NCBI GenBank assembly: GCA_903813345.2
Contig: CAIIXF020000006.1
Location: 35,316,436 to 35,380,435 of the forward strand
Reading direction: 5' to 3'
Length of the DNA stretch: 64,000 nt
DNA from: Owenia fusiformis
Lineage: Eukaryota > Annelida > Polychaeta > Sabellida > Oweniidae
The notes beneath the pieces were generated by a model. The model had not been told where the DNA came from. It made no database searches and was given only the letters and a program-made list of their open reading frames with translations. Shown here one piece after another: positions 1,491-36,784 of the stretch (positions are counted from its first letter, which is position 1; each line of letters opens with the position of its first letter). Made by a program: the position numbers and the translations under genes.

Positions 1491-1745
1491 TCTTACGAAA
1501 ATTAAATCATAATTACATCGATTACCTGCGCAATTCTAATTTATTCTCGATAAAGCCTCCAGATTTTAATAACTTACATACTTACTTCTAATAATCAACG
1601 ACATTTAAATTATAGCAGGACCCCCTTTTGGGGATAAATCAGTTTTAATTTTCGTATTTTTCAAACTTCGGTTTTCGCGGTATTTTTCATATTTTTGCGC
1701 GAATTTTCTTATTTTCAGCTAACGGGTTTTACCTACCTCTTCGTC

Positions 1746-4700
1746 ATGGGTTTCCAAGGATATGGATTGCTCCTTCTCTGCTTTGTTTTCGCAGTCCAGT
1801 CATTTTTCTGTGATCATGGAAACCACTTACCTTCAACAGAGTCATACACACAGTTGATGCAACTGCGACGTTTCCATAAGATTGTTGGCTCTCGTGGAAT
1901 CCTTCACAAGAAATCTTCCACACCACTGCTCTTCCTATGTCTTATTCTTAGTGGTGACATCCACCCAAACCCAGGTCCTGTTAAATTTCCCTGCGGTATG
2001 TGCCACAAAGCAGTTGCCAAGAATCATCGCGCCCTTGAATGCGATGAATGCGGCACATGGGTACACATCAAATGTGGCAATGTTTCCCCTGCTGAGTACA
2101 ATGTTTTTCTTGACGCGGGCAGTTTCACCTGGATCTGTCCTGGATGTGCCCTACCTAATTTTTCCAACAGCTTCTTCAATGACTCCACTCTTTCTCATTC
2201 CTCGGTAACAAACTCCTTCAGCGCTCTCTCTGATCTTGACAATTCGTCATCATCATCTGATTCTACCGAATCAGAACCACCGAGGCTGACTGCACGAAAG
2301 AGGCGAAACCAGGTTCGCCTCATGTCTATCAACTTCCGCAGTCTAATTAGTCATGAGAAGCAACTACACCTTCAACAACTAATTGAAACTCACAAGCCAG
2401 ATGTCATCATAGGCTGTGAGACTCACCTGGACAACACCATCGACAGCAAATGGATATTCGGTCAAGACTACCTTAGCCCACCTCCATACAGGAAAGACCG
2501 AAAGAAAGGTGCTGGCGGTGTCCTTATCGCAGTCAAAAGTGACTTCATATCAGTCGAATATGAAGCGACAGCTGATTGCGAAATCATATGGTCCAAAGCA
2601 TCTCTATCAAATGGGGACATACTGTTTGGATCCTTCTATCGTCAACCAAACAACGATACTGGTGCTTTGGACTCGCTCCAAACATCCCTCGATAAACTTT
2701 ATGCTAATGGTAATACACATATGAAAAACATCTTCCTATGTGGTGACTTCAACTTACCAGACATCGATTGGGAGAAAGGAACTATAAGGCCTAATTCTCA
2801 ATATTCTAATGATCTTAATGAGAAGATGATTACAATAACTGATGATCATGGCCTAACCCAACTAGTCAAGGAACCAACTAGACAAAATAACATCCTTGAC
2901 TTAGTATTCACTACATGCCCAAACCTCGCAGAAAGAATCTCGGTGGTTCCGGGCATGAGTGATCACGAGGCAGTCCTATGTGATATAAACCTAAAAATGA
3001 AAATTCAGAAAAAGAAGCCTCGTAAGGTCCACATATACAAGCGGGCAGAATGGACTGGACTTAAAGAGACTCTACGATCTAAGTTCAGCGAATTCAAAGA
3101 GAACTGTGAAAGTAGATCAGTTGAAGACAACTGGTCCTCCTTCAAATCTACATTAATATCGTCAATCAATGAGCATATTCCAAGTAAAACTCTAAGCGGG
3201 AAATTCAAAGTACCCTGGATTACCACCAGGATACTGAGAATGATCCGACAGAAACAAAGACGATATAATGTTGCCAAACGTTCAAATGAACCTCATCATT
3301 GGCATAAATACAAATCACTACGGAAATTAATCCATAGTGAAATTCGTAAAGAACATCAGTGCTACATCAACGATCTGCTTGACATTGATGAAAGCGAAAT
3401 CATAAATGAGAATGTTCAGCACAAAGGCATTACCAAACGCTTCTGGAGCTACATAAAGTCTAAACGCAAAGATGCATCAGGTATCAGCGTGCTGCGTAAC
3501 AAAGATGGCGACGAAATAACAGACGCCGCCCAGAAAGCAAACATCCTCAATGACCAATACAATTCTGTATTCACAGATGAGGATGCCACTCTACCGACAA
3601 TGGTACCTAGTCAAATTCCTGAAATGCCAAATATCAAAATTTCGACAAAAGGAATTCACAAATTGCTAACTGGCCTAAATCCATCAAAAGCCACTGGACC
3701 CGATCTTATTCCGACTAGGGTCCTGAAGGAATGCAGTGACAGCATATCACCATTCCTTCAAATAATTTTTCAACAGTCTATCGATGAAGGCTTAGTGCCT
3801 ATGGACTGGAAACATGCCAATGTTACTGCTATCTACAAAAAGGGACGAAGAGATGAGGCTGTGAATTACAGGCCTGTATCTCTGACGTCAGTTCCATGTA
3901 AAATAATGGAACATATTATATTCCATCATGTTATGGCCCACTTTGACCTCTATGAAATTCTAGTAAAATTCCAACATGGATTCAGGTCAAAGCACTCATG
4001 TGAAACACAACTTGTCAATACAATAGAGAATATAGCTCGGGCCCTCGACAACAATAAACAAACAGACATGTTGGTATTAGACTTTTCCAAAGCGTTTGAC
4101 ACGGTGGCTCACGAACGCCTCTTGCTCAAACTCGACTATTATGGAATTCGCAATAATAACTTGAACTGGTTCAGATCCTGGCTTGTGGGAAGATCACAAC
4201 AGGTAGTGCTCGATGGTGAATCAAGTTCAAAAACTCCAGTAAAATCAGGAGTTCCTCAAGGAACAGTTCTTGGACCACTCTGTTTCCTTGTTTATATCAA
4301 TGATATGGGCAATAACCTATCATCCTCAGCCAGTCTTAAGCTTTTTGCCGACGACAGCCTTTTATTCATGACAGTCGAAAGCAAGCAAGATGCATTAACA
4401 CTACAGGAGAATCTTGATAAACTGGTCTCCTGGGCATCAACATGGCAAATGAAATTCCATCCATCAAAATGCTATGTGCTAAATATTCACAAAGGTAAAT
4501 CCCCTATCATGCACAATTACACCATGCTAGGGGAAAACCTTAAGTCGGTAACACACATCCCATACCTAGGAATTGACATCACAAATAACTTACGCTGGAC
4601 TACACATATTCAAACTATTGTATCCAAAGCCAATAAGGTGCTTGGATTTCTCAGGCGCAACCTCCATCAATGCCCTGAAAAAGTGAAGGCTCAGGCGTAT

Positions 4701-5165
4701 AAGTCACTAGTCCGGCCTAATTTAGAGTATGCCAGCTCGGCATGGGATCCGTACCGACAAAAAGATATTGATATGTTGGAACAGGTACAGAGAAGAGCAG
4801 CCAGGTTTGTAACCAAATGTCACTCAAGGGAACCAGGCTGCGTCACCAAAGCTCTTCAAGACCTACAGTGGGAGCCACTGAAGGAGCGTCGAGAGGCTGC
4901 TAGAGTTTTCCTTTTCTACAAAGGAAAGCAGAACCTAGCAGCCATCGACGTGCCTCCATACTTCCGCCAACAGATCAATACCAACACTAGGTTGTATCAT
5001 CCTTCTAAGTTCATACAACCATCAACTAGAACGGATGCATACAAATTTAGCTATTTCCCTAGGACAATAGCTAAATGGAACACTCTACCTGGTGACATCT
5101 TAGACTGTGACAGTCTAAGTAGTTTTAAATCATCATACTATGCCTATGTCAATAACTGCAATTAA
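1746..5165 (+). CDS. LINE polyprotein: PHD finger, APE endonuclease, reverse transcriptase
   Basis: The enzyme nicks target DNA and copies its own RNA by target-primed reverse transcription. The first ATG is at 1746 (1139 aa); the frame is open upstream to 1695 but has no ATG there. Order seen: hydrophobic, signal-like N-terminus (MGFQGYGLLLLCFVF); a second hydrophobic stretch ending LSGDIHPNPGP, which is 2A-like; a Cys4-His-Cys3 PHD-type finger (CGMC..CDEC..WVHIKC..CPGC); an APE-type endonuclease (SINFRSL, GCETHL, CGDFNLPDIDW, SDHEAVL); a reverse transcriptase (RPVSLTSVPCKIMEH, QHGFRSKHSCETQL, LVLDFSKAFDTV, GVPQGTVLGPL, FADDSLLF with the catalytic ADD) and a C-terminal tail. No frameshift or internal stop was seen and the catalytic motifs are present, so it may be active. 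Assignment to the CR1/L2/Crack side of the Jockey group is from motif order and memory. Confidence 0.93.
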   Translation: MGFQGYGLLLLCFVFAVQSFFCDHGNHLPSTESYTQLMQLRRFHKIVGSRGILHKKSSTPLLFLCLILSGDIHPNPGPVKFPCGMCHKAVAKNHRALECDECGTWVHIKCGNVSPAEYNVFLDAGSFTWICPGCALPNFSNSFFNDSTLSHSSVTNSFSALSDLDNSSSSSDSTESEPPRLTARKRRNQVRLMSINFRSLISHEKQLHLQQLIETHKPDVIIGCETHLDNTIDSKWIFGQDYLSPPPYRKDRKKGAGGVLIAVKSDFISVEYEATADCEIIWSKASLSNGDILFGSFYRQPNNDTGALDSLQTSLDKLYANGNTHMKNIFLCGDFNLPDIDWEKGTIRPNSQYSNDLNEKMITITDDHGLTQLVKEPTRQNNILDLVFTTCPNLAERISVVPGMSDHEAVLCDINLKMKIQKKKPRKVHIYKRAEWTGLKETLRSKFSEFKENCESRSVEDNWSSFKSTLISSINEHIPSKTLSGKFKVPWITTRILRMIRQKQRRYNVAKRSNEPHHWHKYKSLRKLIHSEIRKEHQCYINDLLDIDESEIINENVQHKGITKRFWSYIKSKRKDASGISVLRNKDGDEITDAAQKANILNDQYNSVFTDEDATLPTMVPSQIPEMPNIKISTKGIHKLLTGLNPSKATGPDLIPTRVLKECSDSISPFLQIIFQQSIDEGLVPMDWKHANVTAIYKKGRRDEAVNYRPVSLTSVPCKIMEHIIFHHVMAHFDLYEILVKFQHGFRSKHSCETQLVNTIENIARALDNNKQTDMLVLDFSKAFDTVAHERLLLKLDYYGIRNNNLNWFRSWLVGRSQQVVLDGESSSKTPVKSGVPQGTVLGPLCFLVYINDMGNNLSSSASLKLFADDSLLFMTVESKQDALTLQENLDKLVSWASTWQMKFHPSKCYVLNIHKGKSPIMHNYTMLGENLKSVTHIPYLGIDITNNLRWTTHIQTIVSKANKVLGFLRRNLHQCPEKVKAQAYKSLVRPNLEYASSAWDPYRQKDIDMLEQVQRRAARFVTKCHSREPGCVTKALQDLQWEPLKERREAARVFLFYKGKQNLAAIDVPPYFRQQINTNTRLYHPSKFIQPSTRTDAYKFSYFPRTIAKWNTLPGDILDCDSLSSFKSSYYAYVNNCN

Positions 5166-6407: not shown

Positions 6408-6963
6408 AGGATATTCATTTTAAAAAATTTTCAAAAACAAACTTAGCAGACTTCATGATTTGGAAATATAAGCCAATGTCAAAATAGCCCCATGATCGAA
6501 ATGCCTCTGATGAAGTACTCATACTTGAATTGGAAGTTCGACTCATCTTCCCTAACAAAATGTTGTTGCCTCAAATTTATGATTTTTATGATTACAACTG
6601 AGATGTAGGCAGTAATTTTTCACAACCTTTTTATTAGCATATTTTGATTATCTTAAGATTTTGAGGCTGACACACATTTGTGCCAAAAAGATCGAGAAAA
6701 AATTGCTTATATCTTGTGAAATAATGGAAAAATAAAAATCATACCATCAAGCCAAAATGGATCTTTTTGTAACCAGTTTGAAAAGTTCTTCCATGGTGAA
6801 GGTTACCAAGATCAGATGCATTTCCAAAATTTTGACCAGATGTAGGATTAATTAATAATGAATTCAACTGCTTTTTCAACAATTGACCTCTTGGATAAAT
6901 AGATGGGAGCATGTGTGTGCTAGATACAAGCATATATAATTGGAAAAACTGACTAAATCATGC
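6408..6963. other. Spacer between the two MITE A copies
   Basis: AT-rich sequence with no recognisable gene, RNA or repeat structure. Confidence 0.4.
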
Positions 6964-8511: not shown

Positions 8512-8619
8512 ATTCATATTGGAACTCAAGTCCAAGTTTTTGTATTTTGTCTTGAAGGAAAGAGTCAATTCTTTCACTTTGAGACACCGTAAGGTTATCC
8601 TTCCAGTCATCTATTACAC
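8510..8619 (-). CDS. Sulfotransferase exon 7 (C-terminus)
   Basis: 110 nt including the stop; acceptor TTTTTCCAG|GT. It codes GVIDDWKDNLTVSQSERIDS through LGLEFQYE. This is the classic SULT tail (RKG..GDWK..FTV....) with the dimerisation motif KxxxTVxxxE. Confidence 0.88.
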
Positions 8620-11600
8620 CTGGAAAAATATATACAACAATTCATTAATTCACTTAACTATTAAACGGCATTATTTTTACATGATTTAAAGATATAGTTT
8701 AGGCAATAGTTACATTTTGATACAAGGCATTAACATGACAAAATGTCACCACCTAAAACAATTTGGTCAATTTAAAGCAAGTTGGAAAATACCTTTTGAC
8801 CTTAAGAAGGTTTGATTTGAACTTCTTAGAACATGTAGATGATTTTGAAAAAAAAATTCGTCAATTTGAAGCAAGTTGAAAAAATACCTCTTTGAATTCT
8901 TTTGACATTGAGAAGGTCATTGAAGGTCAAATGTCAAATGTAAAGTCAGATTTGAACTTCTGAGAACATGTAGATGATTTTGAAAAAAAAATTTAGTCAA
9001 TTTGAAGCAAGATGAAAAAATACCTTTTTGACCTTTTTTGACATTGAGAAGGTCATTGAAGGTCAAATGTCAAATCTAGAGTCAGATTTGAATTTCTGAG
9101 AACATGTAGATGATTTTGAAAAAAAAATTTAGTCAATTTGAAGCAAGTTGAAAAAAGACCTTTTTGACCTTTTTTGACTTTGAGAAGGTCATTGAAGGTC
9201 AAATGTCAAATCTTAAGTGAAATCTAAAGTCAGATTTGAACTTCTGAGAACACGTAGATGATTTTGAAAATTTTTTTTAGTCAATTTGAAGCAAGTTGAA
9301 AACAGACCTTTTTGACCTTTTTTGACCTTGAGAAGGTCATTGAAGGTCAAATGTCAAATCTAAAGTCAGATTTGAAGGTCAAATGTCAAATCTAAAGTCA
9401 GATTTGAATTTCTGAGAACATGTAGATGATTTTGAAAAAAAATTTAGTCAATGTGAAGCAAGTTGAAAAAAGACCTTTTTGACCTTGAGAAGGTCATTGA
9501 AGGTCAAATGTCAAATCTAAAGTCAGATTTGAACTTCTGAGAACATGTAGATGATTTAGAAAAAAATTGAAGTCAGTCTAAACAGTATTTGTTAAGTTAT
9601 AGGAAGTTGTAAGAAATTGTTACAGACGCCGGACGCCAACCTCCAACCGCCGGACGCCGGACGCCAACCTCCAACCGCCGTCGCAAAAAAAACGGAGACC
9701 ATAACAATATGTCACCACTTTTGGTGGTGACATAATAATAAAATAAGTCTAATGAAAAATGACTTCAAGAGCAGAAATCAAAAAATTAAAAATCTCAAAG
9801 CTGATAAACAATCATAGAGCCACATTTTAGATCTAACAACATTTCAAGATAAATGAAACATTTAAAAATAACATTTTAAGGAAACAATACCTTGATATAA
9901 CTTACCTTTCCTCATATGACCTGCACTGTTGTCGTGTCCTGATCTCTCCTTGATTGTCTCAAATACTTTGCCTGTTTTGGGATTATTTCGCATTTTGTTG
10001 AAGGTAAGATGTTCAACTATATTGTCTTTTTCAGCTTCCGTGAGATCTTTCTCCAAGAATTCTGCAGTTTTAGTAACAGATTCCGCTAGGTCCTTTAGAG
10101 AGAAGTAAAATTATTTATCTCAATCAATTTTAATAAAAAGTAATATATTCTGCTCGGTCCTTTGGACAACAAAAGTGAAATTATTCATATCAATGTTTTG
10201 AATAAAAATTTCGATTTGAAAAATTTCTAATCGAGTACCAATTTATTTAAGCCTTTGTTTTGTAGTTTGACAATTAGTTTGTGGATCCGTTGAACTTCAC
10301 TTAGTTACCAATCTTGAAATAACATCTGAAAAAATTCACACATATACAGAGTACACACTTTAAAGGGATAATAACCTCAAGTAAAAACTATGATTCATCA
10401 GAATAATAAGTCTATAATCAACACATGACCCGGGTATGAGCGACGATCTTCTAATGCATCGGCAGATATATTGGAATTAATTTTGAGGTATTGGATCTTC
10501 ACCTGGATTATGGAGGTCGCCATAACCTACCTATGAATATTCATGAGCTGCGTCACTGCGACTCGACAAATTCAGCATTTTGATTGGCCCGAAAAATGCG
10601 CATGCGCAATTGTAGCGGGGCGGCCACATTGAAAAATATTACGAACTTCTTAACAAGAAAATGGAGCAATTTGAAGATTTTGACGATGTATTTGGCATAT
10701 TGACATACTATAATATGATATCACCTGTTCGAGAAAAACATGACCATGTTCACATCAATACTTACAATTCATAGAATTAACTCCCAAAGTGCCAATCAAA
10801 ACCAAAAACTGACCAACTCGTGAACGTTGGTTACCGGCATGACAGGAAAATGCGTTAATTTTATGTTGACAATCAATTATCTCTCGATTGTTTTGCTTGA
10901 AGATTAAACATATTCGGATCTTTTATTTAATAAAATGACGAATGGCAGATATTAATTGGATTTTTGACACTCTGTTATAAATATAAGGCAGAACTGAAAA
11001 TGTATTCCCCGTCATGAATGATCGCGATCGATGACGCAAGGTTCGTCATTTCGATCACCATTGAGGTGTATTTCTGTTGTATTTACAGTAGACAACAAAC
11101 AATTTAAAGGCTCTTAGACCTAGTGTGTTATATTTATTTCACAAATATGGTATTAAGTTATAAAGCTATTAAAGACATACGATACGATACGATACAATTC
11201 AAAAAGTTTTTTCAAAATGGCGTCGACCTAACCGGCACATGGCCTGGTTCAGTTCTCTTTTTGGGACCGGATTGCTCGCCTTGAATCCGTTTTCTTTGGT
11301 TTCTTGTGAGAGAATATGTATGGTATGGCAACTGCCCGAACGACAGTGAGATTCCATTGTCGATAACGACAGTGTTATTTCTGTTGCCGATAGCAAACTG
11401 TCGTGGGTAAACCCGGAAGTAAAATTGTGTTCAATCTACGCCGTTTGAGGAGAAAATCAGCTAAAACAACTTGCCCCGCGTGTCTAGAACCATCATCACT
11501 GTAGCGTCTATATTATCAATACTTACTTGAAATATCCTGACATCGAACTAAATAAACCGCTCTAACTTCAGTTGTTATTCATTTTTATTCACCAATCAAT

Positions 11601-14600
11601 TTGGAAGAGCTTTTGAAGAGCGATTTCAGCATTTGAGGCAATCTGCGCCAGTTCCTCTTGATTCGGAATCTAGTTCATGCGCATTAGAATGAATAGTTTG
11701 ATTGGCTTAATTCCAAAACACATGCGCACTTGTAAATTATTTCAAACTACTAGGCATGCGCGAAGAGTTGAAGCAAAAACGAAACTGCTGCAGATTACCC
11801 TACTTATTCGATGGCGGAATTGTAAATTCTTTATTCAAAATGTTTTCCCGTATTGGGAAGAAAAAACACAACCCCAGGATAATTATAGGACGACAAACAA
11901 GACAATAATAAGTGGGAATCTTTGATTGTTAAAAGCCGTGCATGAAACTTTTCAGAAACTATAGTAAGTGACACTGTTTTAAATGTGTTCTATTCCCCGG
12001 GGATTCGGTCCACGACAACGACAGCTGGTTTTAACTGTCGACAGATTTTAATTCTACCGTCACCAGCCGACTGTCGTACTGTCATTCAGGCATTTCTTTT
12101 AAAGTCCTTATCCCAAGTCTAGCTCTATTAGTGGAAATATTTGAACAATTTACCGCACAACACATAGGCATTTTCCTTTGTTGTGAATGCTTTCAAGATG
12201 GCGGCTCAGGTCGCAGAAACGTCACACTTCCGGTCTACATCCGGGTCTCTGAGGGAAATATGGCGAGCCCCGTCCAACAGACAACTGGGTCACTGGGTCA
12301 ATTTATGATTTTTATTTTTAATATTATACAAAAACTAACACATAACAAGATTTTCAACTTATTGCATTTTATTCAGTAGTATTGTAACTACATATAATGA
12401 TGATTAGAATACCTGACATTATTTCCGCTTTAAAAGAATAACAATAAATGTGTAGATTTGAATAAGAAATTTGATATTTTTCCCCCAAAATTGTCAGAAT
12501 TATCAAATTTTGTAATAAACCATGTAGCGTTAAAAATTCTTCATGAGTTTCGTGATGCTGTGTTCCTATTGATTTTATGAGCCATGTTGACACTTAAAAC
12601 AATTCAAATACCCCCCCCCCCCCCCTCTGACCTCACTTACAAATATCTGACAAAAATGACTTACATTCACCATATCCTCATATTTAATGAACAGCACTTT
12701 TAGATGATCTTTTTGTGCCCAAAAGCCAGACAGGTGGTTGAACCAGGTGCCATACACAACTAAACCGTGAGAAAAATATACATTCATAATACTATTTAAT
12801 TATTAATTCAATTCAACCCTCTTTTCTTTCTACCAAAATGAATACGCTTTGGTTAAACTATTATAAGAAATAGAAACTTCCCATTGAAGAAACATAAGTA
12901 CATGTACATGGATCGATCAGGAAGTCCAGGGATTTCGACTGTTGACTGAGGATACCCTCATTCTATTCTGGGCACCTTGACGTTTTGAATCATCTGATCA
13001 GGAAACAAATATTTTTTTATATTTTCATATATTTTTTTATTTGTGAAATTTTTGACATTATTTATGTCACTATGTGCCACTTAATAAATATAAAAAATTA
13101 TTTTCATGTTCCAGACTACTTACATCTGTCATTTTGCTGTGTGAGGTTATCATCCAAGATGTTATCAAGTGTTCGAAAGTCAGCCTCCGAAACTTCAGCC
13201 CCGCCTTGGAAACTCTTGAACATATGACTTATGCTGCAGAGTACGGACTTGGGATTACGCATCACAACGACCAGCTTGAGGTAAGAAAACATTTTCATAT
13301 TCAATTGTAGTCTCATTTTTGGTGTCATCTCACATTGCATTTTCCATACATGCCATATATTTCATTCTTTGAATAAACAAAAATAAGTTTTGCACTTCAT
13401 TTAGGTAAACGAAACAAACAATATCAAAAGTGAATAGATTTTGGTGCAAAACATATTAGAGATAAAACTTTATAATCTCACTTTCCCCTTTGAGAGAGTG
13501 TGAGTAAAACAGATTTTGATTTAAGAGTCAATTCTTCAAAATCTGTTTTTTTTGATAACATTAGTGATTTTGTTGCAACTCTCAACAAGGAGTATTGTAT
13601 ACCCCTTACGGTTGTTATCCCACCGAACGAAGTTTGAGGGGGATATAGAAAAGCAGTCCGTCCGTCCGACACTGAAGCGTTCATGGACTTGTTAATATAC
13701 TGTAGTTCAGGGATCCAGTTATGTCTTATTTATTGAATCCATGCAGGGAAGGGGAGTGTTTCCATGGACTAAAACGTTAAACCCACCTATGCCCAGTCAC
13801 AAGCCTGAGGAACCTGCTTTTATATCTAATGTGGATTTTTATCTTACCAGTTATGACTTAAATATTAATATGGGTATTTCCTATAATTAATATATACTGG
13901 ATTTTAACTTACCAAATATGACTTCAATATTAATATGGGTTTAAACCTATAATAAATTAAATACTGGATATGACAAATAAATAAAATCAAAAATTTAATC
14001 TGCCTACATGATGTAGATATCCAAATGTTGGTCTGAATTTATCTTTGTGGAAAGATTGTATGCTTCAGTTGCTCTTTAACAAAACATGTGGAACAGTGTA
14101 TCTATATATTACAAGATGTCCGTCCGTTTGTCCGTCCTTCATGTGTCCGGGCAATAACTCAAATACCGGTTGACGGTATACAAATATGTTGACGAAATAT
14201 TAATATGGGTTTAAACCTATAATAAATTAAATACTGGATGTTGCCTTTAGGTATAAAGGGATACCCTAGATGGCACCTTATCTCACAAGTCCCATCTGTA
14301 ACACCTTTAGGTATAAAGGGATACCCTAGATGGCAACTTACACTACAAGTCCCATCTGTAACACCTTTAGGCATAAATGGATACCCCAGATGGCAACTTC
14401 CCTTACAAGTCCTATCTGTAACACCTTTAGGCATAAAGGGATACCCTAGATGGCACCTAACCTTACAAGTCCCATGTGTAACACCTTTAGGCATAAAGGG
14501 ATACCCCAGATGGCAACTTCCCTTACAAGTCCTATCTGTAACACCTTTAGGCATAAATAGGTACCCCAGATGGCAACTTACCTTACAAGTCCCATCTGTA

Positions 14601-17600
14601 ACACCTTTAGGCATAAAGGGATACCCTAGATGGCACCTTATCTCACAAGTCCCATCTGTAACACCTTTAGGCATAAAGGGATACCCTAGATGGCAACTTA
14701 CACTACAAGTTCCATCTGTAACACCTTTAGGTATAAAGGGATACCCTAGATGGCACCTTATCTCACAAGTCCCATCTGTAACACCTTTAGGTATAAAGGG
14801 ATACCCTAGATGGCAACTTACACTACAAGTCCCATCTGTAACACCTTTAGGCATAAATGGATACCCCAGATGGCAACTTCCCTTACAAGTCCTATCTGTA
14901 ACACCTTTAGGCATAAAGTGATACCCTAGATGGCACCTAACCTTACAAGTCCCATGTGTAACACCTTTAGGCATAAAGGGATACCCCAGATGGCAACTTC
15001 CCTTACAAGTCCTATCTGTAACACCTTTAGGCATAAAAAGGTACCCCAGATGGCAACTTACCTTACAAGTCCCATCTGTAACACCTTTAGGCATAAAGGG
15101 ATACCCTAGATGGCAACTTACACTACAAGTCCTATCTGTAACACCTTTAGGCATAAAGGGATACCCTAGATGGCAGCTTACCTTACAAGTCCCATCTGTA
15201 ATACCTCTAGGCATAAAGGGATACCCCAGATGACTGACAAATATTCGGGGAGAGGGGAGTGAAGTAAAAGTATCAAACTGAAAGTTGCCATGCTGTTTGT
15301 TGACATCTTTTAGTCCAATCTCACCACTGAGCACTGGAATACAAGATATTAGATTACAGTTGATTCGGTATGAAATTTCACTTATATAAATTAGGGGAGC
15401 TTGTCAAAATAAAGATTTGGAGAGGGGTCCGTTGTAGGAGCCCAGATTCAAAGGCTAGGATACAAGTGTTGCTTAAATTCTTTCCCCACTTTGCAAAAGA
15501 TTAAACAGAATCACCAATAACTCTTTTGCAAGAGGTTTGCAAGGTTTGACCTTTTGAAATGTTGACCTACATAAGCACCCACCTTACTTGGTTTGTTAAA
15601 GATAGTATTTCTCAACTGCCAACTTGAAATTATGAATTTGAAGAAGATTATCAATATCACTGAATCAAAAAATAACCATTCTCAGCTGAATAATATAGCA
15701 TGTATATTATATTATATACCTTGTTCTGATTGGTTGGATTATGATATATTATGGCTATCTATCTTGAACTATAGATGGCAACAATGTTAGACACTAACCT
15801 AAGATCATGTCAATAAGTCTGCATACTGTTATGATTTATACCTGTTTAACTCTAATGCTACTGGAGCCAGCTAAAAGTGTTCAGATTGGCAGGTTCTGAG
15901 TTCATATTTCAAGGTTTTCATTCATTAGAGTGTAGTGTATAGCAAATTCGAAAAATGGATCAAAAATTGTTTATAATGAGAGGTGTTTGGATTGAAGAGG
16001 TGTTCAGATAGAAAGGTTTTACTGTATTTTTGTGTTTTTATCAATTTTATATACTAATCTTTTTTAATGTCAAATGTTTTGTACCAAATATTACAAGCAC
16101 TCAAGAAGGTTCTTTAGGTTCATATGATAAAAATCACTTCCACCTTCGTCTTATTTTCAAAAGAATCGCTCCTCCATAAAGTATCTTTGCATTTATTTGA
16201 GCTATATAATGTTATCATTTTAACAGAAATTTTTATAGATATAGCAAGCACCCGATAATGCTACTAGAAAAGATTTGGCTTACTACAATCACTCGTTGTA
16301 GTAACAGTTTGTTACAATTTTATTTTGGAGTTATTTAGAGGATGTGTCCCAATTACGTTCACTGCTTGTTCTAAGTTTGACAGGAATCCTAGGTCGATCC
16401 CTCAAATATCTTCCCATATTACCAGTAAATAGTGGGAAGTGTTACATAAAATTGAAAATGGTTAAGAAGCCAAAGAGAAAAAACAAAAGTAGACCAAAAT
16501 CATGCCTCATCTGTATTCCAAATGTACAAGGGGACAAAAAATGTACCTCCCAATGACCTACTATACCTTATTTTTCAAAAAGATAGATCAAAGCAATATC
16601 ATTGGTAGAAATAGCCCCCTGACAAAGCTTACTAGTTAATCAATTTTAATTTAAAAATCATCGAGTCACTTAATATAAAGTTATATGTTACTTTGTTTTG
16701 GAATGTCCAACCATGTGAACCTGTCATGAACATGGACATTGTTAGCTGCGTGCAAGTCATCTGAATGAAGGATAAGATGTACCATGGAGCCTACCCAATG
16801 TGTTCCTGAAATAAATAATATTACTTCTGTAGTGAAGGATAAGATGTACCTTGGAGCATATACAATGTATCCCTGAAATAAATAATATTACTACTGTAGT
16901 GAAGATGGAGCCTACCAAATAATGTCCCTGAAATAAATAATATTACTTCTGTAGTGAAGGATAAGATGTACCTTGGAGCATATACAATGTATCCCTGAAA
17001 TAAATAATATTACTACTGTAGTGAAGATGGAGCCTACCAAATAATGTCCCTGAAATAAATAATATTACTTCTGTAGTGAAGGATAAGATGTACCTTGGAG
17101 CATATACAATGTATCCCTGAAATAAATAAGATTACTACTGTAGTGAAGATGGAGCCTACCAAATAATGTCCCTGAAATAAATATGATTACTTCTGTAGTG
17201 ATTGATAAGATGTACCACTAAGCCTACACAATGTGTCCCTAAAATGAATAAGATACAGTGAAATATAAGATGTTCCATGGATCCTACCAAATATGTCCCC
17301 GAAATAAATAAGATTACTTCTGTAGTGAAGGATAAGTTGTACCATGGAGTCTACCAAATGTGTCCCTGAAATAAAATAATATTACTGCTGTAGTGAAGGA
17401 TAAGATGTACCATGGAGTCTACCCAATGTGTCGCTGAAATAAATAATATTACTGCTGTAGTGAAGGATAAGATGTACCATGGAGCCTACCCAATGTGTCG
17501 CTGAAATAAATAATATTACTGCTGTAGTGAAGGATGAGATGTACCATGGAACCTACCCAATGTGTCGCTGAAATAAATAATATTACTTCTGTAGTGAAGG

Positions 17601-18163
17601 ATAAGATGTACCTTGGAGCATATACAATGTATCCCTGAAATAAATAAGATTACTGGTGCACTACTTCAATACTTTCAAGATTGCTTAATAATTTCAAGTT
17701 TGTTTCTTTAAAAGAGAACTTTCAACTTCAACAAAGTATATATACTTGGGTTGTATTGTTATTTGGTAGTATTGTTGTTGCACTGACAGTAGGTCACTGA
17801 ATTTTCTCATTTTTTATAAATTTTATGAAAAAAATATTCTTTACACTCTTTTCTAGGTACATCAGTGCACTCTTTGTGCAAAACTGAAAGATGTAGAAAA
17901 TGTTGGGAAGGAGTAATTGATATTTGAAAAATAGCATGTGACTCTATTGAAGAATGCATCAAAATTCCGAACATACAGACTCACCTTAAATACATGTACT
18001 CTATAAAAGGCATACCTGATCTTGGATAAGAACTGATGACGATATCATCCTCTCTCATTGGTAAAGTGTGAATCTTTTCCAGCGTGTCAAAATGTGCCTG
18101 GCTATGAAATAAGCATCCATTAATGATTTTAAAGCCAAATTGTTTCATTCGTTTTTCGTCCAT
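8510..18163 (-). CDS. Cytosolic sulfotransferase (SULT family), seven coding exons
   Basis: Transfers sulfate from PAPS to small acceptors (phenols, alcohols or steroids in the family) in the cytosol; this gene's substrate is unknown. Join of 18163-18016, 16805-16692, 15333-15182, 13274-13124, 12759-12665, 10092-9906 and 8619-8510; 957 nt, 318 aa, close to the usual 290-310. Every junction is in phase and each exon ends at a GT/AG site. Motifs seen: YPRSGTHW (PAPS 5'-phosphosulfate loop, usually YPKSGTTW), SPRIFVSHLGY with the catalytic His, RNPKSVLCSISH (3'-phosphate binding), YGTWFNH, YEDM, RKGVIDDWK and KDNLTVSQSE, which matches the KxxxTVxxxE dimer motif. Lys to Arg in the first loop and Asp for the second Gly in RKGxxG are unusual. 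Exons 5 and 6 have sizes close to vertebrate SULT exons (95 and 187 nt). Two introns hold exon-derived minisatellites. Start: first ATG of the frame in good context (gtgATGG). Confidence 0.9.
8742..9731. repeat. AGGTCA-rich element in the last sulfotransferase intron
   Basis: About 1 kb with inverted ends ATGTCACCACCTAAA and TTTGGTGGTGACAT; the right end is itself a hairpin. Inside are about six diverged tandem units of roughly 120-150 bp, each with AAGGTCATTGAAGGTCAA and 'gaacatgtagatgattttgaaa' followed by 'gtcaatttgaagcaagttgaaa'. That module is shared with 28980-29080 and the 52-64 kb elements. Near the right end is a GC-rich duplicated block (9625-9685, 'gccggacgccaacctccaac'). Confidence 0.65.
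9906..10092 (-). CDS. Sulfotransferase exon 6
   Basis: 187 nt; acceptor CTAAAG|GAC, donor AAAG|GTAAGT, phase 0 to 1. It codes DLAESVTKTAEFLEKDL, EAEKDNIVEHLTFNKMRNNP and AGHMRK. It matches the family's 'I...L.F..MK.NP' and 'FMRKG' blocks. Confidence 0.88.
10093..12664. other. Sulfotransferase intron 5: possible inserted elements, no gene recognised
   Basis: The intron contains several CpG- and NRF1-type sites (a perfect TGCGCATGCGC near 10598, others near 11685-11765), ATGGCG motifs near 11218, 12196 and 12260, a short ATACG microsatellite (about 11175-11200) and a 37-codon plus-strand frame at about 10661 (MEQFEDFDDVFGIL) that I could not assign. Possibly old promoter-bearing transposons. 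Confidence 0.4.
12611..12625 (-). repeat. G15 run beside the exon 5 donor
   Basis: Fifteen C on the plus strand, so G15 in the pre-mRNA, 40-54 nt downstream of the exon 5 donor and just past a second GTAAGT. G-runs near donors often modulate splicing; an effect here is inference. Confidence 0.5.
12665..12759 (-). CDS. Sulfotransferase exon 5
   Basis: 95 nt, the same length as the matching vertebrate SULT exon; acceptor GGTTTAG|TT, donor AAT|GTAAGT. It codes VYGTWFNHLSGFW and VLFIKYEDMVN, the conserved 'YGSWF.H...W' and 'YEDM' block. A run of 15 C on the plus strand (G in the transcript) lies 40-54 nt past the donor. Confidence 0.88.
13124..13274 (-). CDS. Sulfotransferase exon 4
   Basis: 151 nt; acceptor CTCAAG|CTG, donor AGAT|GTAAGT, phase 0 to 1. 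It codes LVVVMRNPKSVLCSISHMFK and continues to NLTQQNDR. It contains the RNPKD-like 3'-phosphoadenosine binding motif (Asp replaced by Ser). Confidence 0.88.
13604..14160. repeat. GTCCGTCC-type dispersed repeat in sulfotransferase intron 3
   Basis: Starts 'tatcccaccgaacgaagttt', then 'gagggggatatag' and 'gtccgtccgtcc'; a related copy starts at about 33588. Inside, a block with 'atattaatatgggt' occurs near 13860 and 13930 and again near 14200, directly against the 60-bp array. Confidence 0.5.
14244..15232 (-). repeat. 60-bp coding minisatellite seeded by sulfotransferase exon 3
   Basis: Seventeen 60-bp units (starts spaced exactly 60 from 14250 to 15210). The unit nearest exon 3 is the exon's own 3' end plus donor. 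Each unit reads CHLGYPFMPKGVTDGTCKVS with small changes, and the exon frame stays open through all of them. Unit variants: KVS (AAG|GTAAGY), SVS (AGT|GTAAGT), KVR, KGS (donor lost) and EIR (donor weakened). Seven of 17 units keep a strong GTAAG donor, all in phase 0. Units 3-8 and 11-16 share the same variant order, so there is a 480-bp higher-order repeat. The antisense frame is also open for much of the array, as expected for a stop-poor repeat whose unit length is a multiple of 3. Confidence 0.93.
15182..15333 (-). CDS. Sulfotransferase exon 3
   Basis: 152 nt; acceptor TGTATTCCAG|TG, donor AAG|GTAAGC, phase 1 to 0. It codes MLSGEIGLKDV, then SLPSPRIFVSHLGYPFMP and RGITDGTCK. This aligns with the family's 'SPR..KTHLPY..LP' segment holding the catalytic His. 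The 3' end and donor are the first of 17 tandem 60-bp units. The frame stays open through the whole array, so use of a downstream donor would only lengthen the protein. Confidence 0.85.
15334..16691. other. Sulfotransferase intron 2
   Basis: AT-rich and apparently unique; no gene, RNA or clear repeat recognised. Confidence 0.4.
16692..16805 (-). CDS. Sulfotransferase exon 2
   Basis: 114 nt, phase 1 to phase 1. The acceptor is TTATTTCAG|GA. It codes THWVGSMVHLILHSDD through RFTWLDIPKQ, completing the PAPS-loop motif begun in exon 1. The donor is AAA|GTAACA. It is the terminal copy of the 67-bp minisatellite: the array units repeat only the acceptor and the first 45 or so coding bases, while this copy alone continues into unique coding sequence. 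Confidence 0.8.
16763..17655 (-). repeat. 67-bp minisatellite seeded by sulfotransferase exon 2
   Basis: About 14 units, 67 bp when full, several shortened to about 55. In sense orientation each unit holds a pyrimidine-rich tract and acceptor (TTATTTCAG|), the start of exon 2 (ACACATTGGG coding THW), 'catggtacatcttatccttcac' and 'tacagaagtaata', which offers a GT. Units near 17365, 17431, 17498 and 17567 stay closest to the exon. Others lost the acceptor (near 17298) or most of the coding part. Units are not multiples of 3, so read-through would break the frame, but a single unit spliced as a 48-nt cassette would keep it. Confidence 0.88.
17861..17975. repeat. Fragment of the hAT element found at 47.7 kb
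   Basis: Matches 47690-47800 in order ('gcactctttgtgcaaa', 'ggaaggagt', 'catgtgactc', 'gaatgca'). A short 3' piece of the same hAT family, located in sulfotransferase intron 1. Confidence 0.6.
18016..18163 (-). CDS. Sulfotransferase exon 1
   Basis: Codes MDEKRMKQFGF through EDDIVISSYPRS plus one base of Gly. The donor is CAG|GTATGC (phase 1), the conserved SULT intron position between YPKSG and TTW. A second donor (AAG|GTGAGT) lies 34 bases further on but would leave the frame. Confidence 0.88.
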
Positions 18164-31501: not shown

Positions 31502-32367
31502 TTAACAACAGTCAGGCCCTGTAGTGTTCACTGAAGATCTCTCTTTACAATAGAGGACTGTTCTGAAACCATCTCTAAAATCTTTAGATCTCACTGGGTA
31601 AACAATAAAATTCATGCCTGAATTCATAACAGCAATGTGGTAGAATACCATATAAAGAATAAACATATTTTGTTTCTGATTTGTGCTAAAGAAGTTCATC
31701 TCGTAACCAGAAGCAAGAACGACAAATGGTGCCCAGCATATGACAAACAGTCCAATGACTAAAACTGCCGTTTTGATTAATTGTATATTCTTTTGTAAAT
31801 TTGTTGAATCATTGCTATTATGTTTGTCCAGTTGTTTCTTAACTGTCCATAGAATCCTGATATATAGCACTACTACTAATATTACAATTACTAGAAATAA
31901 AGGCAGATATGTATATCCCATGATTCTTGGGTCAATATTACCTTTATCGCCAACACAAATGTTATGTTGTGATGTACTGGTATTGTACAATATAGAATCC
32001 ATTGTGGAAATAGCTATATATAGTGTTGTCCCTATCCATAAGCCTGCCACCAAATATTGCATACGCCGTTTTGTCATAATACTCGGATATTTAAGTGGAT
32101 AAAATATTGCCATGTATCGGTCAATTGTGATGACAAGCAGGAATAAAAGTGACACCAGTGTCGGTAGAACTAGTAATATTTGAGATGTGATGCAGATAAT
32201 GATGCTTTTTTCTCCAATTTCTGGTAATACAAAACTAGAAAGCATCATCATATAGACAAGTGATGCACCAACGCATAGATCAGCTATAGCGAGTTGAATC
32301 ACAAAGAAGTTAGCTACTGTTTGTAGACGTTCATATTTCCAATACGCTGCAATTACGAGTGAATTAC
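31502..32367 (-). CDS. GPCR 1, exon 2: rhodopsin-family receptor
   Basis: Plasma-membrane seven-helix receptor; ligand unknown. Joined with exon 1 (33223-33100) it gives 329 aa. Acceptor CTCTTTTCAG|GT, phase 1, splitting the Gly of the TM1 'GN' motif. Seen: N1.50 (GNS), LAIADL (D2.50), Cys at the TM3 start with an ECL2 Cys (CVGDKG), IDRYMAI (DRY), YPLKYPSIMT loop, FVICWAPFV (CWxP) and MNFIVYP, which stands where NPxxY is expected (Pro replaced by Phe). The tail has the palmitoylation-like CKERS. The DRY..PLKY loop and tail recall the adenosine/melanocortin/amine side of class A, but I cannot go further. No stops or frameshifts. Confidence 0.92.
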
Positions 32368-32762
32368 CTGAAAAGAGGATGTAAATATTTGGTATGAATT
32401 GATACTCCTGAGGTCACATTAGTTCAAGGTCAATCAATGGAATAGACCAAAAATTGTTGAACCCAGCAAGAAAAAGAAAACATTTAGTATACACAAGTCA
32501 TAAGGAAAACTAACCCCAACTATCCCAAGCCATAATTCAATGTGAAAACAAAACAATGTCAAGAATCAAAATGCAATATTTGGTAGGCTCAAAATCCCTT
32601 AGGTCAAGAATACTGAAGGCCTAAATCACAATTAAAAGTCAAATTTTGCTTTAAATGAAGGCATTAAAGTTACAAACATGGAAACTAATGTCAATCGCAT
32701 AGCAGATACATTGCAAATATTCAATATTATTTAGACTGTATTATACTTTAATAATACTATAA

Positions 32763-33010
32763 GTTATTGAATGATTTGAAGTGCAATACAGGATATATTC
32801 TGCTCGAGAAATTCCGTATTGGAACGAGACGAAGTCGAGTGCCAATACAGAATATCGAGACAGAATATATCCTGTATTGCACTTCAAATCATTCAATAAC
32901 GTTTTTATCGTGTGATCCTCTGTATTGCTACTGAGATTGTCCCCTCCGTACCAATATTTTCTGTATTACGACGGAGATGATCAACGGGGACAATCTCAGT
33001 AGCAATACAG
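32763..33010. repeat. Double hairpin element in the GPCR 1 intron
   Basis: Two adjacent palindromes. Arms 32763-32802 and 32861-32900 are perfect 40-nt reverse complements (starting GTTATTGAATGATTTGAAG). Arms 32920-32944 and 32986-33010 are perfect 25-nt ones (CTGTATTGCTACTGAGATTG). The perfect pairing implies recent origin or maintenance by conversion. Likely a foldback MITE. Confidence 0.85.
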
Positions 33011-33099
33011 ATTGGTACAGCACAATAACTGACCAATCAGAGGGCTTCATTTTACAGATAACACGATAAACAAATTTTGATTAATGTAGAAATGTTTAC

Positions 33100-33223
33100 C
33101 TATTGATATCCATAACACCATTAAGATTTCAATAATTAATACAGCTTCATTTGTATATCCTTCATACATGTCCTCATACGTGTATCTAAATGTCTCATTT
33201 GCTGCAAAGCTGGAATTCTCCAT
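33100..33223 (-). CDS. GPCR 1, exon 1
   Basis: 124 nt; ATG at 33223 starts MENSSFAANETFRYTYEDMY and runs into the first half of TM1 (VLIIEILMVLWISI). Donor ATAG|GTAAAC, phase 1. Two N-glycosylation sequons (NSS, NET). The same exon organisation occurs in all four paralogs. Confidence 0.88.
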
Positions 33224-35026
33224 GTCTTTATTTGATTTTGTTTCAAGTGATTTTTGGTTAAAGTCCCTAATGTTGTTGTTAAGTTTCTATAGGGCAGGAC
33301 TCTCCTCACATGCTCCTACAATATTTCTATGGGCTTCCTAAATCCTCCATCAAAAACCATAAAAATGCTTAAACTATTACACAAAAAATCTTAAAATGTT
33401 CTCTTTGAAATTCCAAATATTTGTATATTTTATATATTGTTACTCATTTTTGGAGAAATCTGTTATTTCTTGTATACTATCTGACTCCAATTAGTTTCTG
33501 CTGCCAAATGTCCTATATATTCCATTGTAAGCTGTGGTTATGAAATGCAAATATATGCAAAGGGAATGACTAATAGGGGTTAATTATCCCACCAAACAAA
33601 GTTTGAGGGGGATATAGAGAAGCCATCCATCTGTCTGTCCTTCTATTCATTTGTTCGCCCATTCGTGTATCTGGGCGATAACTTAACCAAGCTGAATTTT
33701 AAAATGGCCACTGTTTTTTTTGCAAAAAAACATTATTTTTTGTAACTCAAATATAAGTGGATAGATTTTGATCAAATTTTATATACGGGTACCTAGAGAC
33801 AAAGGAGCTCTGTTCAAGAAGAAATTTTCAAAATAGCTCATGTACATCAAAACATGTTTTGTTTGTTGGGATCTGCTACTCTGTGGAGTTGCTGTTTTCT
33901 AGTGTTTTTTCTATAAAATACACTTATTATTTGCAATTTTACTGCAGTAGGAAAAAGTGCAAAACTAAACGCACTAAACACAAAATACAGTAAAGTATCA
34001 CATTTTGATAAAAGGATGTGTCCTTTTGGTCCCTCAGTCTTTATGTGAAATATGGTTTTTATTTCTGTCCTAGTTATATTTGATAAGTATATTTACTTTT
34101 TCACGAGTTTTGATGCATGCATAATTAACCCCCTGCTGAGAGTCAGAATAAGCATCTTAACAACAACAAAAATAGTCATTATCTTAGAAAAAACACCAAT
34201 GGCAACATGTGTGACATACAAAGAAGAAATAACTTAAAACCCATGAAGAAGGAAAAAGAAAATCATATTTTTGAAATATAATTAAGGATTAAATATTTTT
34301 CAATTTTTGAATATCCCGCCAGTTTAATTTGAAGGGGAAAAACAAGATGGCTGCCATTTGATGTAAGAAATTTCAGAAAAAAAGTTTTCACAATGAGCAC
34401 AGTTTTCCAGTTCAGGTTTTTTGACTGATTCTGACTCTTCATCACCACGGTCATGTATAGAGATTATAAAATTGAAACCAAAATGTTGTGCTCAGCATGA
34501 ATTTGACTGAAATATGTGTACTTCACTAACACAATTGAAGTGCCAAAACTGGATGCTCAGTAACTTTGAGTGATCAAATATTATCCCTTGATTACAGATA
34601 AACACCAATTCACTTATCCAGAAATACCATTCAATGTCTATAAAAAGAAAGTAAGCAATGTTTTAGAGGATATGTTTCAAACTTTTTGTATAAACAATTC
34701 ATTTAATATTTGCCATTGATTTTTTTACAATTCTAGCAAAGTGATATGCATTGTCTTTGATGCCAATATTCTTCATAATTGTGATACAAATTGATATTTC
34801 TGTAATCTCAGAAGAAGGATAAGATATTGAAGTTAAATAATATGTGTGATTTAGTTGGTTTTTCAGACATTACAATTTTCAATATTTTTTAAGTCGATAC
34901 CCAGACTCATTCCCAGACTCATCCTTTGGTTAGACTACAATATAAGCCAAACTGGTTAAAACTTTATATGGGGCCTTTAATAATTGTATCTCAAGAAAAC
35001 ACCTTTCATATTGACATACTGAACAC
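33224..35026. other. Spacer between GPCR 1 and GPCR 2
   Basis: Contains a GTCCGTCC-class dispersed repeat ('tatcccaccaaacaaagttt', about 33585-33900, ending near 'ctactctgtggagttgc', which recurs at 38956). The rest is AT-rich with no gene recognised. The 3' flank near 34990 resembles that of the other GPCRs ('aaaacacctttca'). Confidence 0.45.
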
Positions 35027-35886
35027 TTAGGCAGTCTCTGCAGTGTTCACTGTAGATCTCTCTTTACAACAGAGTACAGTTTTTAGACCATCTCTAAAAT
35101 CTTTAGATCTCACTGGATAAACAATAAAATTCATGCCTGAATTCATCACAGCGATGTGGTAGAATACCATATAAAGAATAAACATATTTTGTTTCTGATG
35201 TGCGCTAAAGAAGTTCATCGCGTAACCAGAAGCAAGTATGATATATGGTGCCCAGCATATGATGAATAGTCCAACGACTAAAATTGCCGTTTTGATTAAT
35301 TTTATATTCTTTTGTAAGTTTGTCAAATCGTTGCTATTATGTTGGTCTAGTTGTTTTCTAACTGTCCATAGTATTCGGACATAAAGCGCTACTATGATAA
35401 TTACAACAACGAGAAATAAAGGCAGATATGTATATCCCATGATTCTTGGGTCAATATCACCTTTATCCCCAATGCAAATGTTATTCTGCAATACACTGGT
35501 ATTGTACAATATGGAATCGGTTATGGAAATACCTATATATAACATTGTCCCTATCCATAAGCCTCCTGTCAAAGCTCGCATACGCCGTCTTGTCATAATA
35601 CTTGGGTATTTTAGGGGATAAATTATTGCCACGTATCGGTCAATTGTGATTACAAGCAAGAACAATAGTGACATCAGTGTTGGTAAAGTTAACAATGATT
35701 GAGATAAGATGCAGAGGAGAATGCTGTTTGCAGAAAATTCTAACGACACAAAACTACTAAGCGCTATCAGGTACACCATCGATACACCAACACATAGATC
35801 CGCTATGGCGAGTTGAATCACAAAGAAGTTGGGAACTGTTTGGAGACGTTCATATTTCCAATATGCTGCTATCACGAGTGAATTAC
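35027..35886 (-). CDS. GPCR 2, exon 2: rhodopsin-family receptor
   Basis: With exon 1 (36902-36785) it gives 325 aa. Same architecture as GPCR 1: NSLVIAAYWKYERLQ (TM1), LAIADLCVG, TIDRYVAIIYPLKYPSIMT, WIGT in TM4, CIGDKGDIDPRIMGYTYLP (ECL2 into TM5), IICWAPYI and MNFIVYPVRSKDFRDG. Acceptor CTTTTCAG|GT. Frame intact. Ligand unknown. Confidence 0.92.
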
Positions 35887-36226
35887 CTGAAAAGAGGGTG
35901 TAAACATTTGGTATGTATCAAAATTTTGAGGTCACATAAGTTCAAGGTCGTATTTCTTTTCAAGGTAACCTGAAAGGTCAGATACTAAATTAGACATAAG
36001 TGAGTCATAATCCTTACACTCCCTGATCTTGTATTTAAGGCACATTGCACTTTAGAGACAATAAAATGGTTAAAAAATATTTTTTCTGTGAATCACACTT
36101 GTGACTTCCTGATACTCTAGATTACTAGAGGCCAAAGTCACAATTGAACATCAATTTGGTATTTAGGCAAAGTCACTAACATAAATACTTCCATATTTTT
36201 ACAATATTTAAATAATGTTTGAATAT

Positions 36227-36747: not shown

Positions 36748-36784
36748 AATATGACAAAATGATGAATGTTGATAAAATGAATAC

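What the first reader, a model, noticed from the sequence alone, without database searches (positions are those of the whole stretch)
14244..15333. A splice-donor minisatellite: sulfotransferase exon 3 extends in frame into 16 further 60-bp copies of its own end
The exon 3 end (HLGY...TDGTCK) plus donor is copied 17 times with exact 60-bp spacing and no stop in the exon frame. Seven units keep a strong GTAAG donor in phase 0. Choice of donor would yield enzymes with n x 20 residues inserted next to the catalytic His segment, or the array is a set of decoys. Repeat-number variation between individuals would change the transcript directly.
Basis: partly seen in the sequence, partly recalled or inferred. 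Interest (0 to 1): 0.9.

Follow-up and report, generated by a model that had tools for sequence, protein, structure and literature searches.

The report
Splice-donor minisatellite in a sulfotransferase gene
The end of one exon of an animal sulfotransferase gene, together with its splice signal, has been copied about 16 times into the neighbouring intron; this is a known type of repeat, most likely tolerated because splicing mainly uses the first copy, though in-frame longer proteins remain possible.

Summary
The array is real. On the minus strand, 16 full 60-nt units and a 29-nt partial one run from 15232 to 14244. Each full unit is the last 17 codons of a sulfotransferase exon (15333-15182) plus 9 intron bases. 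The exon frame stays open, and 7 of 16 units keep GTAAG in phase 0. Joining at the first donor gives a normal SULT sequence in a gene whose four exons around the array share one open frame.

Two points weaken the 'isoform generator' reading. The open frame is uninformative (P about 0.65 under neutrality). Similar splice-junction arrays recur in this genome: an acceptor array in the same gene, 14-nt and 83-nt donor arrays in two paralogs, and arrays at five Pfam-supported exons of other families. Of 15 donor arrays collected (seven judged by eye), 12 have unit lengths not divisible by 3, so most of their downstream donors would break the frame. Arrays sit on 4 of 36 SULT junctions examined, close to the repeat content of the DNA (7.5-16%).

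Best reading: a minisatellite born across the donor, spliced mostly at the first copy, perhaps with leaky +20n-residue isoforms. Human IFI6 and CBS are precedents. No RNA was available.

The parts
14244..15232 (-). Donor minisatellite: 16 full 60-nt units (51 nt exon end + 9 nt intron start) and a 29-nt partial unit
   Evidence: TRF; unit-by-unit listing
15182..15333 (-).
   Evidence: PF00685 E=1.5e-9 with exon 4
15180..15181 (-). First (exon-proximal) donor GT, AAG|GTAAGC; joins in frame to exon 4
14340..15121 (-). Span of the six further phase-0 GTAAG donors (units 2, 3, 7, 9, 11, 15; G of GT at 15121, 15061, 14821, 14701, 14581, 14341)
   Evidence: each gives a stop-free join to exon 4
14724..15112 (-). 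Units 3-9 (part), first copy of an internal duplication
   Evidence: lag-8 comparison: units 3-8 differ from units 11-16 at 2 of 360 positions
14244..14632 (-). Units 11-17 (part), second copy of the internal duplication
   Evidence: unit 17 fragment listed
13124..13274 (-). SULT exon 4 (LVVVMRNPKS...), 151 nt
   Evidence: tblastn to paralog L010
16806..17654 (-). Acceptor minisatellite: units of intron end + exon start, steps mostly 67 nt (also 55, one 68, one 60); 14 acceptor-like copies including that of the real exon
   Evidence: TRF (16766-17654); sequence; listing; steps
16692..16805 (-). SULT exon preceding 'exon 3' (GTHWVGSMVHLILHSDD...IPKQ), 114 nt, phase 1/1; its start is the last copy of the acceptor array
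   Evidence: tblastn to 6 of 7 paralog loci, E from 5e-12 to 2.5e-4
18016..18102 (-). P-loop exon (...DDIVISSYPRSG); 5' end not determined
12662..12775 (-). SULT exon (VVYGTWFNHLSGFWAQKDHLKVLFIKYEDM); edges approximate
   Evidence: tblastn
9901..10095 (-). SULT exon (PF00685 positions 166-227, ...HMRKG)
8513..8620 (-). Last SULT exon (GVIDDWKDNLTVSQSERIDSFLQDKIQKLGLEFQYE, stop); edges approximate

Best explanation
The array is a minisatellite that arose by tandem duplication of a segment spanning the 3' end of a SULT exon and its donor, then grew by unequal exchange or slippage, including a recent duplication of a block with an 8-unit (480-nt) offset. Such a duplication is tolerated because the authentic exon and donor stay intact at the upstream edge and the extra copies lie in the intron. 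The splicing machinery most probably uses mainly the first, exon-proximal donor, giving ordinary SULT protein. Because the unit happens to be 20 codons with no stop, occasional use of donor 2, 3 or a later one would add 20, 40, ... residues without a frameshift. This is one of several splice-junction minisatellites found in a repeat-rich genome. Shown: the anatomy, the open gene frame over four exons, recurrence, and the lack of frame preference among the arrays collected. Inferred: the mode of origin, first-donor use, and leaky isoforms.
For: Joining at the first donor gives ...HLGYPFMPRGITDGTCK|LVVVMRNPKSVLCS..., the expected SULT order, in one open frame across four exons. Of 25 paralog places fetched, 21 have a donor at this place and 4 run through it. 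A DNA search found the array nowhere else in the genome. The same class of array recurs: an acceptor array in this gene; a 14-nt donor array at the same junction in paralog L012; an 83-nt donor array in paralog L072; and peptides ending at the first donor of other arrays that hit Rieske_4, Muted, NIF, Neur_chan_LBD and MRPL52 over the Pfam cut-off, 5 of 19 donor arrays against 0 of 15 reversed-motif control arrays (one-sided Fisher P=0.042). 12 of 15 collected donor arrays have unit lengths not divisible by 3; seven of the 15 are exon-abutting by eye only. SULT junctions with arrays: 4 of 36 examined, 2 of 33 outside this gene, against 7.5% (paralog loci) and 15.9% (window) tandem-repeat coverage. 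Neutral expectation explains the open frame.
Against: No RNA was available. By a human-like donor matrix recalled from memory, units 3 and 11 (12.5 bits) are slightly stronger than the first donor (11.2 bits), so strength alone would not choose the first. Variable columns cluster in the donor zone: over all 16 units 7 of 17 lie in its 9 columns (scan P 0.042); in units 2-16, 7 of 15 (P 0.017, or 0.09 if two adjacent changes count as one). This weakly suggests that something acts on the donor copies. In IFI6, downstream repeat donors are used (passage in PMC4526556). The two other collected arrays with multiple-of-3 units, L034 and L044, also read through without a stop in the stretch fetched, so open in-frame arrays are not unique to this gene.
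Confidence: 0.74

Rival explanations
1. Functional isoform generator: several donors are used regularly and produce sulfotransferases with 20, 40, 120... extra residues between the catalytic-His segment and the RNPKS strand, with consequences for substrate use.
For: Unit is 20 codons, stop-free; all six downstream GTAAG phase-0 donors give stop-free joins. IFI6 uses downstream repeat units as donors (PMC4526556 passage). Two other collected arrays with multiple-of-3 units, L034 (33 nt) and L044 (54 nt), are also stop-free in the stretch fetched.
Against: No excess of in-frame unit lengths among donor arrays (3 of 15). No significant codon constraint among units: 6 synonymous of 17 substitutions, P=0.235; 5 of 10 in the first 48 columns, P=0.09. 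Four of the six downstream donors are the weaker AGT|GTAAGT type.
Confidence: 0.14
2. Decoy or damping array: downstream donors, including the phase-1 T|GTAAGG or T|GTGAGA sites in 12 of 16 units, compete with the first donor and send part of the transcript to nonsense-mediated decay. Array length would tune expression.
For: Using the phase-1 donor of unit 1 gives a stop after six codons. Donor-zone variation is elevated, as expected if strong decoys are selected against.
Against: The donor-zone clustering is only marginal. All phase-1 sites score below the first donor by the recalled matrix (at most 5.7 against 11.2 bits). No population or RNA data.
Confidence: 0.07
3. Alternative end: exon 3 is sometimes extended through the whole array to the stop near 14159, giving a truncated enzyme with a repetitive tail.
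For: The frame is open from exon 3 through the array to 14162; the ORF ends at 14159.
Against: The truncation removes exon 4 and all later exons. Polyadenylation signals were not looked for. Nothing here indicates intron retention.
Confidence: 0.03
4. Assembly artefact: copy number or duplicated block inflated by mis-assembly.
For: Units 3-9 and 11-17 are almost identical (2 differences in the 360 nt of full units).
Against: 12 of 16 units are distinct. Similar arrays occur at other loci.
Confidence: 0.02

Closest known systems
Human IFI6 (G1P3, 6-16) splice-donor minisatellite (Turri, Cuin and Porter 1995, NAR 23:1854; only the citation seen; paper not held)
   Same: A minisatellite supplies multiple donor sites at an exon end. 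Two downstream repeat units are used as donors and give three mRNAs (passage in PMC4526556).
   Different: Unit there is 12 nt and adds 4 residues (recalled), against 60 nt and 20 residues here. Donor use there is reported; here it is untested.
Human CBS 31-bp VNTR, c.1444_1467+7(16_21)
   Same: By its name the unit is 24 nt of exon end plus 7 nt of intron start; alleles of 16, 17, 18, 19 and 21 units are tabulated (PMC2630376 passages). The layout is the same as here.
   Different: 31 nt is not a multiple of 3. Human polymorphism is documented. Effects on splicing are recalled, not read.
Variable internal tandem repeats at exon-intron boundaries of human segmental-duplication genes (PMC2812944, Genome Biol. 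2009)
   Same: Minisatellites at exon-intron boundaries in recently duplicated paralogs change splicing (abstract part and passages).
   Different: There the reported effect is formation of novel introns, checked against transcripts.
Sulfotransferase (SULT) family genes, PF00685
   Same: Domain match, PSPR..HL..MP..CK|LVVVMRNPKS order, intron position shared with 21 paralog places.
   Different: The DNA search found the 60-nt array only here. One paralog has a 14-nt donor array at the same site.

Membership tests
Splice-donor minisatellite (IFI6/CBS type) | Tandem array begins at the 3' end of a coding exon and each unit contains exon end plus donor | tested here: met
   unit = 51 nt exon end + 9 nt intron start; 16 units, of which 7 keep GTAAG and 9 have GTTAG, GG or AT there
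Splice-donor minisatellite (IFI6/CBS type) | The exon belongs to a real gene with an in-frame next exon | tested here: met
   gene expression not tested
Splice-donor minisatellite (IFI6/CBS type) | More than one repeat unit is used as donor in transcripts | not testable with these tools
   no RNA data held
Splice-donor minisatellite (IFI6/CBS type) | Copy number varies between individuals | not testable with these tools
   one assembly only; the internal duplication is suggestive
Sulfotransferase PF00685 | Pfam domain match over cut-off | tested here: met
   E=1.5e-9, 38 bits, cut-off 22, on a typed exon 3 + exon 4 peptide that carried two extra residues (LK) at the junction; one search hit at 9901-10095, E=3e-6
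Sulfotransferase PF00685 | Gene with P-loop exon, His segment, RNP strand and C-terminal exon | tested here: met
   the frame was joined only from the P-loop exon to exon 4; 5' end of the gene not defined; enzyme activity not tested

The most novel reading that the evidence does not exclude
In this animal the donor array is a copy-number-variable isoform generator: donors 2, 3, 7, 9, 11 and 15 are used at measurable levels, so individuals with different array lengths make different sets of sulfotransferases carrying 20n extra residues. The acceptor array one exon upstream offers a second set of competing sites in the same transcript.
Probability: 0.13. Interest if true: 0.75.

Novelty: new member of a known kind. 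Interest (0 to 1): 0.4.

Why it matters
Arrays of a few to dozens of near-identical donor or acceptor sites, still attached to real exons in several unrelated genes of one genome, are natural experiments on how the spliceosome chooses between equal sites: does the exon-proximal donor win, and how leaky is the choice? They also show a simple route by which tandem duplication across a splice site can lengthen introns without harm, or lengthen proteins in steps when the unit is a multiple of three. If donor choice here proved leaky, array length would directly change the enzyme.

Tried and rejected
A dispersed repeat family was rejected: a DNA search of the genome with 464 nt of exon and array gave 4 matches, all in this array (the tool warns that such searches can miss matches).

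Genome-wide over-representation of donor-bearing arrays was not supported consistently. For short periods there were 365 matches against 465 for the reversed-motif control. For longer periods, 568 against 328. These are matches, not arrays, and large arrays weigh heavily.

A codon-usage score of sequence upstream of donor and control arrays gave a median of 0.4 against -2.0 (P=0.026). Its training set was partly wrong because the frames picked from L001 and L002 were not the coding ones, so I give it no weight.

Selection on the array's codons: not detected. Selection against donor copies: marginal.

Structure prediction was not used. The interesting protein needs exons joined, which is not a contiguous translation of the window.

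Species comparison was not possible: the tool states that this genome has no relatives held. The organism is not established. This is a guess.

Rows dropped before counting. One search gave 43 matches: 14 in the window, 29 elsewhere. 25 of the 29 were fetched; the other 4 (C10:906494, C5:873740, C8:37191498, C6:24174546) lie in nearly full-length single-frame domain matches, so they have no intron there. Of 14 arrays on C1 in the listing, 11 were fetched; the three left out resemble the unit of one fetched (8832853). All 8 arrays in the listing were fetched. Of 16 control loci in the listing, 15 were fetched; the 16th is the same array as donor array L039. The listings show only the first hits in genome order, and for controls only one flank was examined. 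For donor arrays L033-L042, Pfam was run on single frames of 20 or more residues; L038 had none that long and was counted as a miss, and shorter frames of the others were not run. For the remaining donor arrays and the controls all three frames were scanned. A DUF4904 match for L039 (E=0.017) and a Tetraspanin match for L044 (E=0.07) were below the cut-off and not counted. Of 7 paralog loci fetched for the upstream exon, it was found in 6; L070 was dropped.
Full report
WHAT IS THERE. The window is G000:C6:35316436-35380435 in a genome of 498 Mb. TRF finds a period-60 array at 14244-15232. On the minus strand it starts at the His codon at 15232 and runs as 16 complete units plus a 29-nt fragment, with no indels. 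Each full unit is HLGYPFMPKGVTDGTCK or a variant (51 nt) followed by 9 nt that correspond to the start of the intron (GTAAGTTGC or variants). The exon frame is open through the array; the other two minus frames have stops. GTAAG in phase 0 is found in units 1, 2, 3, 7, 9, 11 and 15 (7 of 16). Units 4, 6, 12 and 14 have GG, units 8, 10 and 16 have AT, and units 5 and 13 have GTTAGG at that place. Units 3-8 match units 11-16 with 2 differences in 360 nt, so the array carries a recent internal duplication offset by eight units.

THE GENE. The exon is part of a sulfotransferase gene on the minus strand: Pfam PF00685, E=1.5e-9 for exons 3+4 (the typed peptide carried two extra residues at the junction). 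Other exons are a P-loop exon ending ...SSYPRSG (18016), a 114-nt exon GTHWVGSMVHL...IPKQ (16805-16692), exon 3 (15333-15182), exon 4 (13274-13124), an exon at about 12775-12662, one at 10095-9901 and the last at about 8620-8513. The four exons from the P-loop to exon 4 join in one open frame with matching phases when the first donor is used; the later exons were located but not joined. At the junction this gives DGTCK|LVVVMRNPKS. Of 25 paralog places fetched (of 29 listed), 21 have a donor at this place and 4 run through it.

A SECOND ARRAY IN THE SAME GENE. The array at 16766-17654 (TRF period 67) is the mirror image. Its main unit is the intron end CTACAGAAGTAATATTATTTATTTCAG plus the first 40 nt of the 114-nt exon, so it is an acceptor minisatellite. 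Fourteen acceptor-like copies are present, 13 ending in AG and one in GG, and only the last, at 16805, continues into the exon. The 13 steps are 67 (eight times), 55 (three times), 68 and 60 nt, so all but one are not multiples of 3.

THE SAME THING ELSEWHERE. In paralog L012 the same exon-3 donor is followed by a 14-nt array (AAG|GTATGCGTGTC), 12.7 copies at L012:6471-6648; a further 48 copies of nearly the same unit lie in the same intron at L012:1179-1850, about 4.6 kb away; 46 exact AGGTATG words were counted in the locus. In paralog L072 an 83-nt array of 6.7 copies starts inside the upstream exon, and its donor occurs seven times (GCAGGTTTG at 83-nt steps). To look beyond this family I searched the genome for three donor consensus words in tandem and fetched 19 of the 22 arrays in the printed listings. 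I also fetched 15 of 16 listed arrays found with the reversed motif. Peptides ending at the first donor matched Pfam over the cut-off in 5 of 19: Rieske_4 3.4e-8; Muted 3.2e-15, NIF 3e-6, Neur_chan_LBD 5e-14 and MRPL52 1.1e-6. A Tetraspanin match (E=0.07) and a DUF4904 match (E=0.017) were below their cut-offs and not counted. None of the 15 control arrays matched. The one-sided Fisher P is 0.042. By eye another seven donor arrays look exon-abutting (L033, L034, L039, L040, L041, L042, L044), but this is unproven; seven more (L036, L037, L038, L043, L046, L048, L050) do not. For Muted, domain matches resume beyond the array in profile order (1-35, 29-73, 74-146, all over the cut-off), while the matches listed inside the array contain stops. 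For MRPL52 they run 6-29 and then 28-55, the second below the cut-off (E=0.15). Both fit first-donor use but cannot exclude inserts.

FRAME. Unit lengths of the 15 donor arrays (three SULT, five Pfam-supported, seven by eye) are 60, 14, 83; 38, 52, 52, 65, 59; 25, 33, 41, 41, 35, 40 and 54 (the first step of L033 is 24). Three of 15 are multiples of 3; the three, 60, 33 and 54, are stop-free in the exon frame over the stretch held. There is no preference for in-frame units. In the other 12, use of downstream donors would shift the frame two times in three. The simplest common rule is that the exon-proximal donor is used. This is inference, not observation.

IS THE OPEN FRAME SELECTED? Among units 2-16 there are 17 distinct substitutions: 11 replacement, 6 synonymous, 0 stop. 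Neutral expectation is 2.5% stops, P(no stop)=0.65, and P(6 or more synonymous)=0.235. In columns 1-48 the counts are 5 and 5, P=0.09. So the openness is what a unit copied from an exon would show. Variable columns crowd into the donor zone: 7 of 17 in all 16 units (scan P=0.042), 7 of 15 in units 2-16 (P=0.017, or 0.09 when adjacent changes are merged). This is a weak hint of selection against extra donors, or of multi-base mutation.

IS THE FREQUENCY SURPRISING? Tandem repeats of period 7 or more cover 15.9% of the window and 7.5% of the fetched SULT paralog loci, arrays of interest included. Arrays lie on 2 of 22 exon-3 donors and on 2 of 14 ends of the upstream exon in seven genes: 4 of 36, or 2 of 33 without the gene that drew attention. 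This is about what random placement would give. I see no targeting of splice sites and no need for a special mechanism.

CONSEQUENCES IF OTHER DONORS ARE USED. Each of the six downstream phase-0 GTAAG donors gives a stop-free join to exon 4 with 20, 40, 120, 160, 200 or 280 added residues. The phase-1 donor T|GTAAGG of unit 1 gives a stop after six codons. So the first donor is strong but not the strongest, and leaky use of donor 3 is conceivable.

KNOWN KIND. Human IFI6 has a minisatellite that provides multiple splice donors; a passage of PMC4526556 says two downstream repeat units are used, giving three mRNAs, and it cites Turri et al. 1995, which is not held. The human CBS 31-bp VNTR is named c.1444_1467+7(16_21), that is exon end plus seven intron bases (PMC2630376 passages). 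PMC2812944 (part of the abstract and passages) reports variable tandem repeats at exon-intron boundaries in human duplicated genes. In annelids, PMC12783039 (passages) describes tandem-repeat arrays within the first intron of earthworm metallothionein genes; the passages do not say that they include the donor. The finding is a new member of this kind. I saw no report of a donor array in a sulfotransferase or an annelid in the listings of searches, but none of those nine searches asked for sulfotransferases, and the library holds only open-licence papers, so this is no proof of absence.

VERDICT. The strong reading (an isoform generator) is possible but not favoured. The most likely state is a tolerated splice-junction minisatellite, spliced chiefly at the first donor, one of several found in this genome.

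Noticed in passing
window 16766-17654 (-): Acceptor minisatellite in the same SULT gene: 14 acceptor-like copies of intron end + exon start abutting exon 16805-16692.
   Followed up: yes
L012:1179-1850 and 6471-6648 (G000:C12:11892900-11899800): Paralog SULT intron with about 60 copies of a 14-nt donor unit in two blocks 4.6 kb apart. The stretch between starts CAGGG and ends CACTG, by eye, and may be a mobile element inserted into one array.
   Followed up: partly
L072:2159-2715 (G000:C8:7031000-7034900): 83-nt donor array, 6.7 copies at 98%, at the end of the GTHW exon of another SULT paralog.
   Followed up: partly
L035, L045, L047, L049, L051, L044, L034: Donor arrays abutting exons that match Rieske_4, Muted, NIF, Neur_chan_LBD and MRPL52, a tetraspanin-like exon (below cut-off) and an unnamed one. 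The last two have in-frame units (54 and 33 nt), stop-free in the stretch fetched.
   Followed up: partly
window 13926-13969 and 14196-14239: A 44-nt stretch occurs twice, identical, in the intron; the second copy lies at the downstream end of the donor array.
   Followed up: partly
window 31502-44319 (-): Four similar GPCR-like ORFs in tandem on the minus strand (31502-32302, 35027-35875, 39625-40575, 43486-44319); family assigned by eye.
   Followed up: no
window 1695-5165 (+): 1156-codon ORF that reads like a non-LTR retrotransposon endonuclease/reverse transcriptase (by eye).
   Followed up: no
window 52582-59330: Several 447-bp-period satellite-like blocks (65-93% matches).
   Followed up: no
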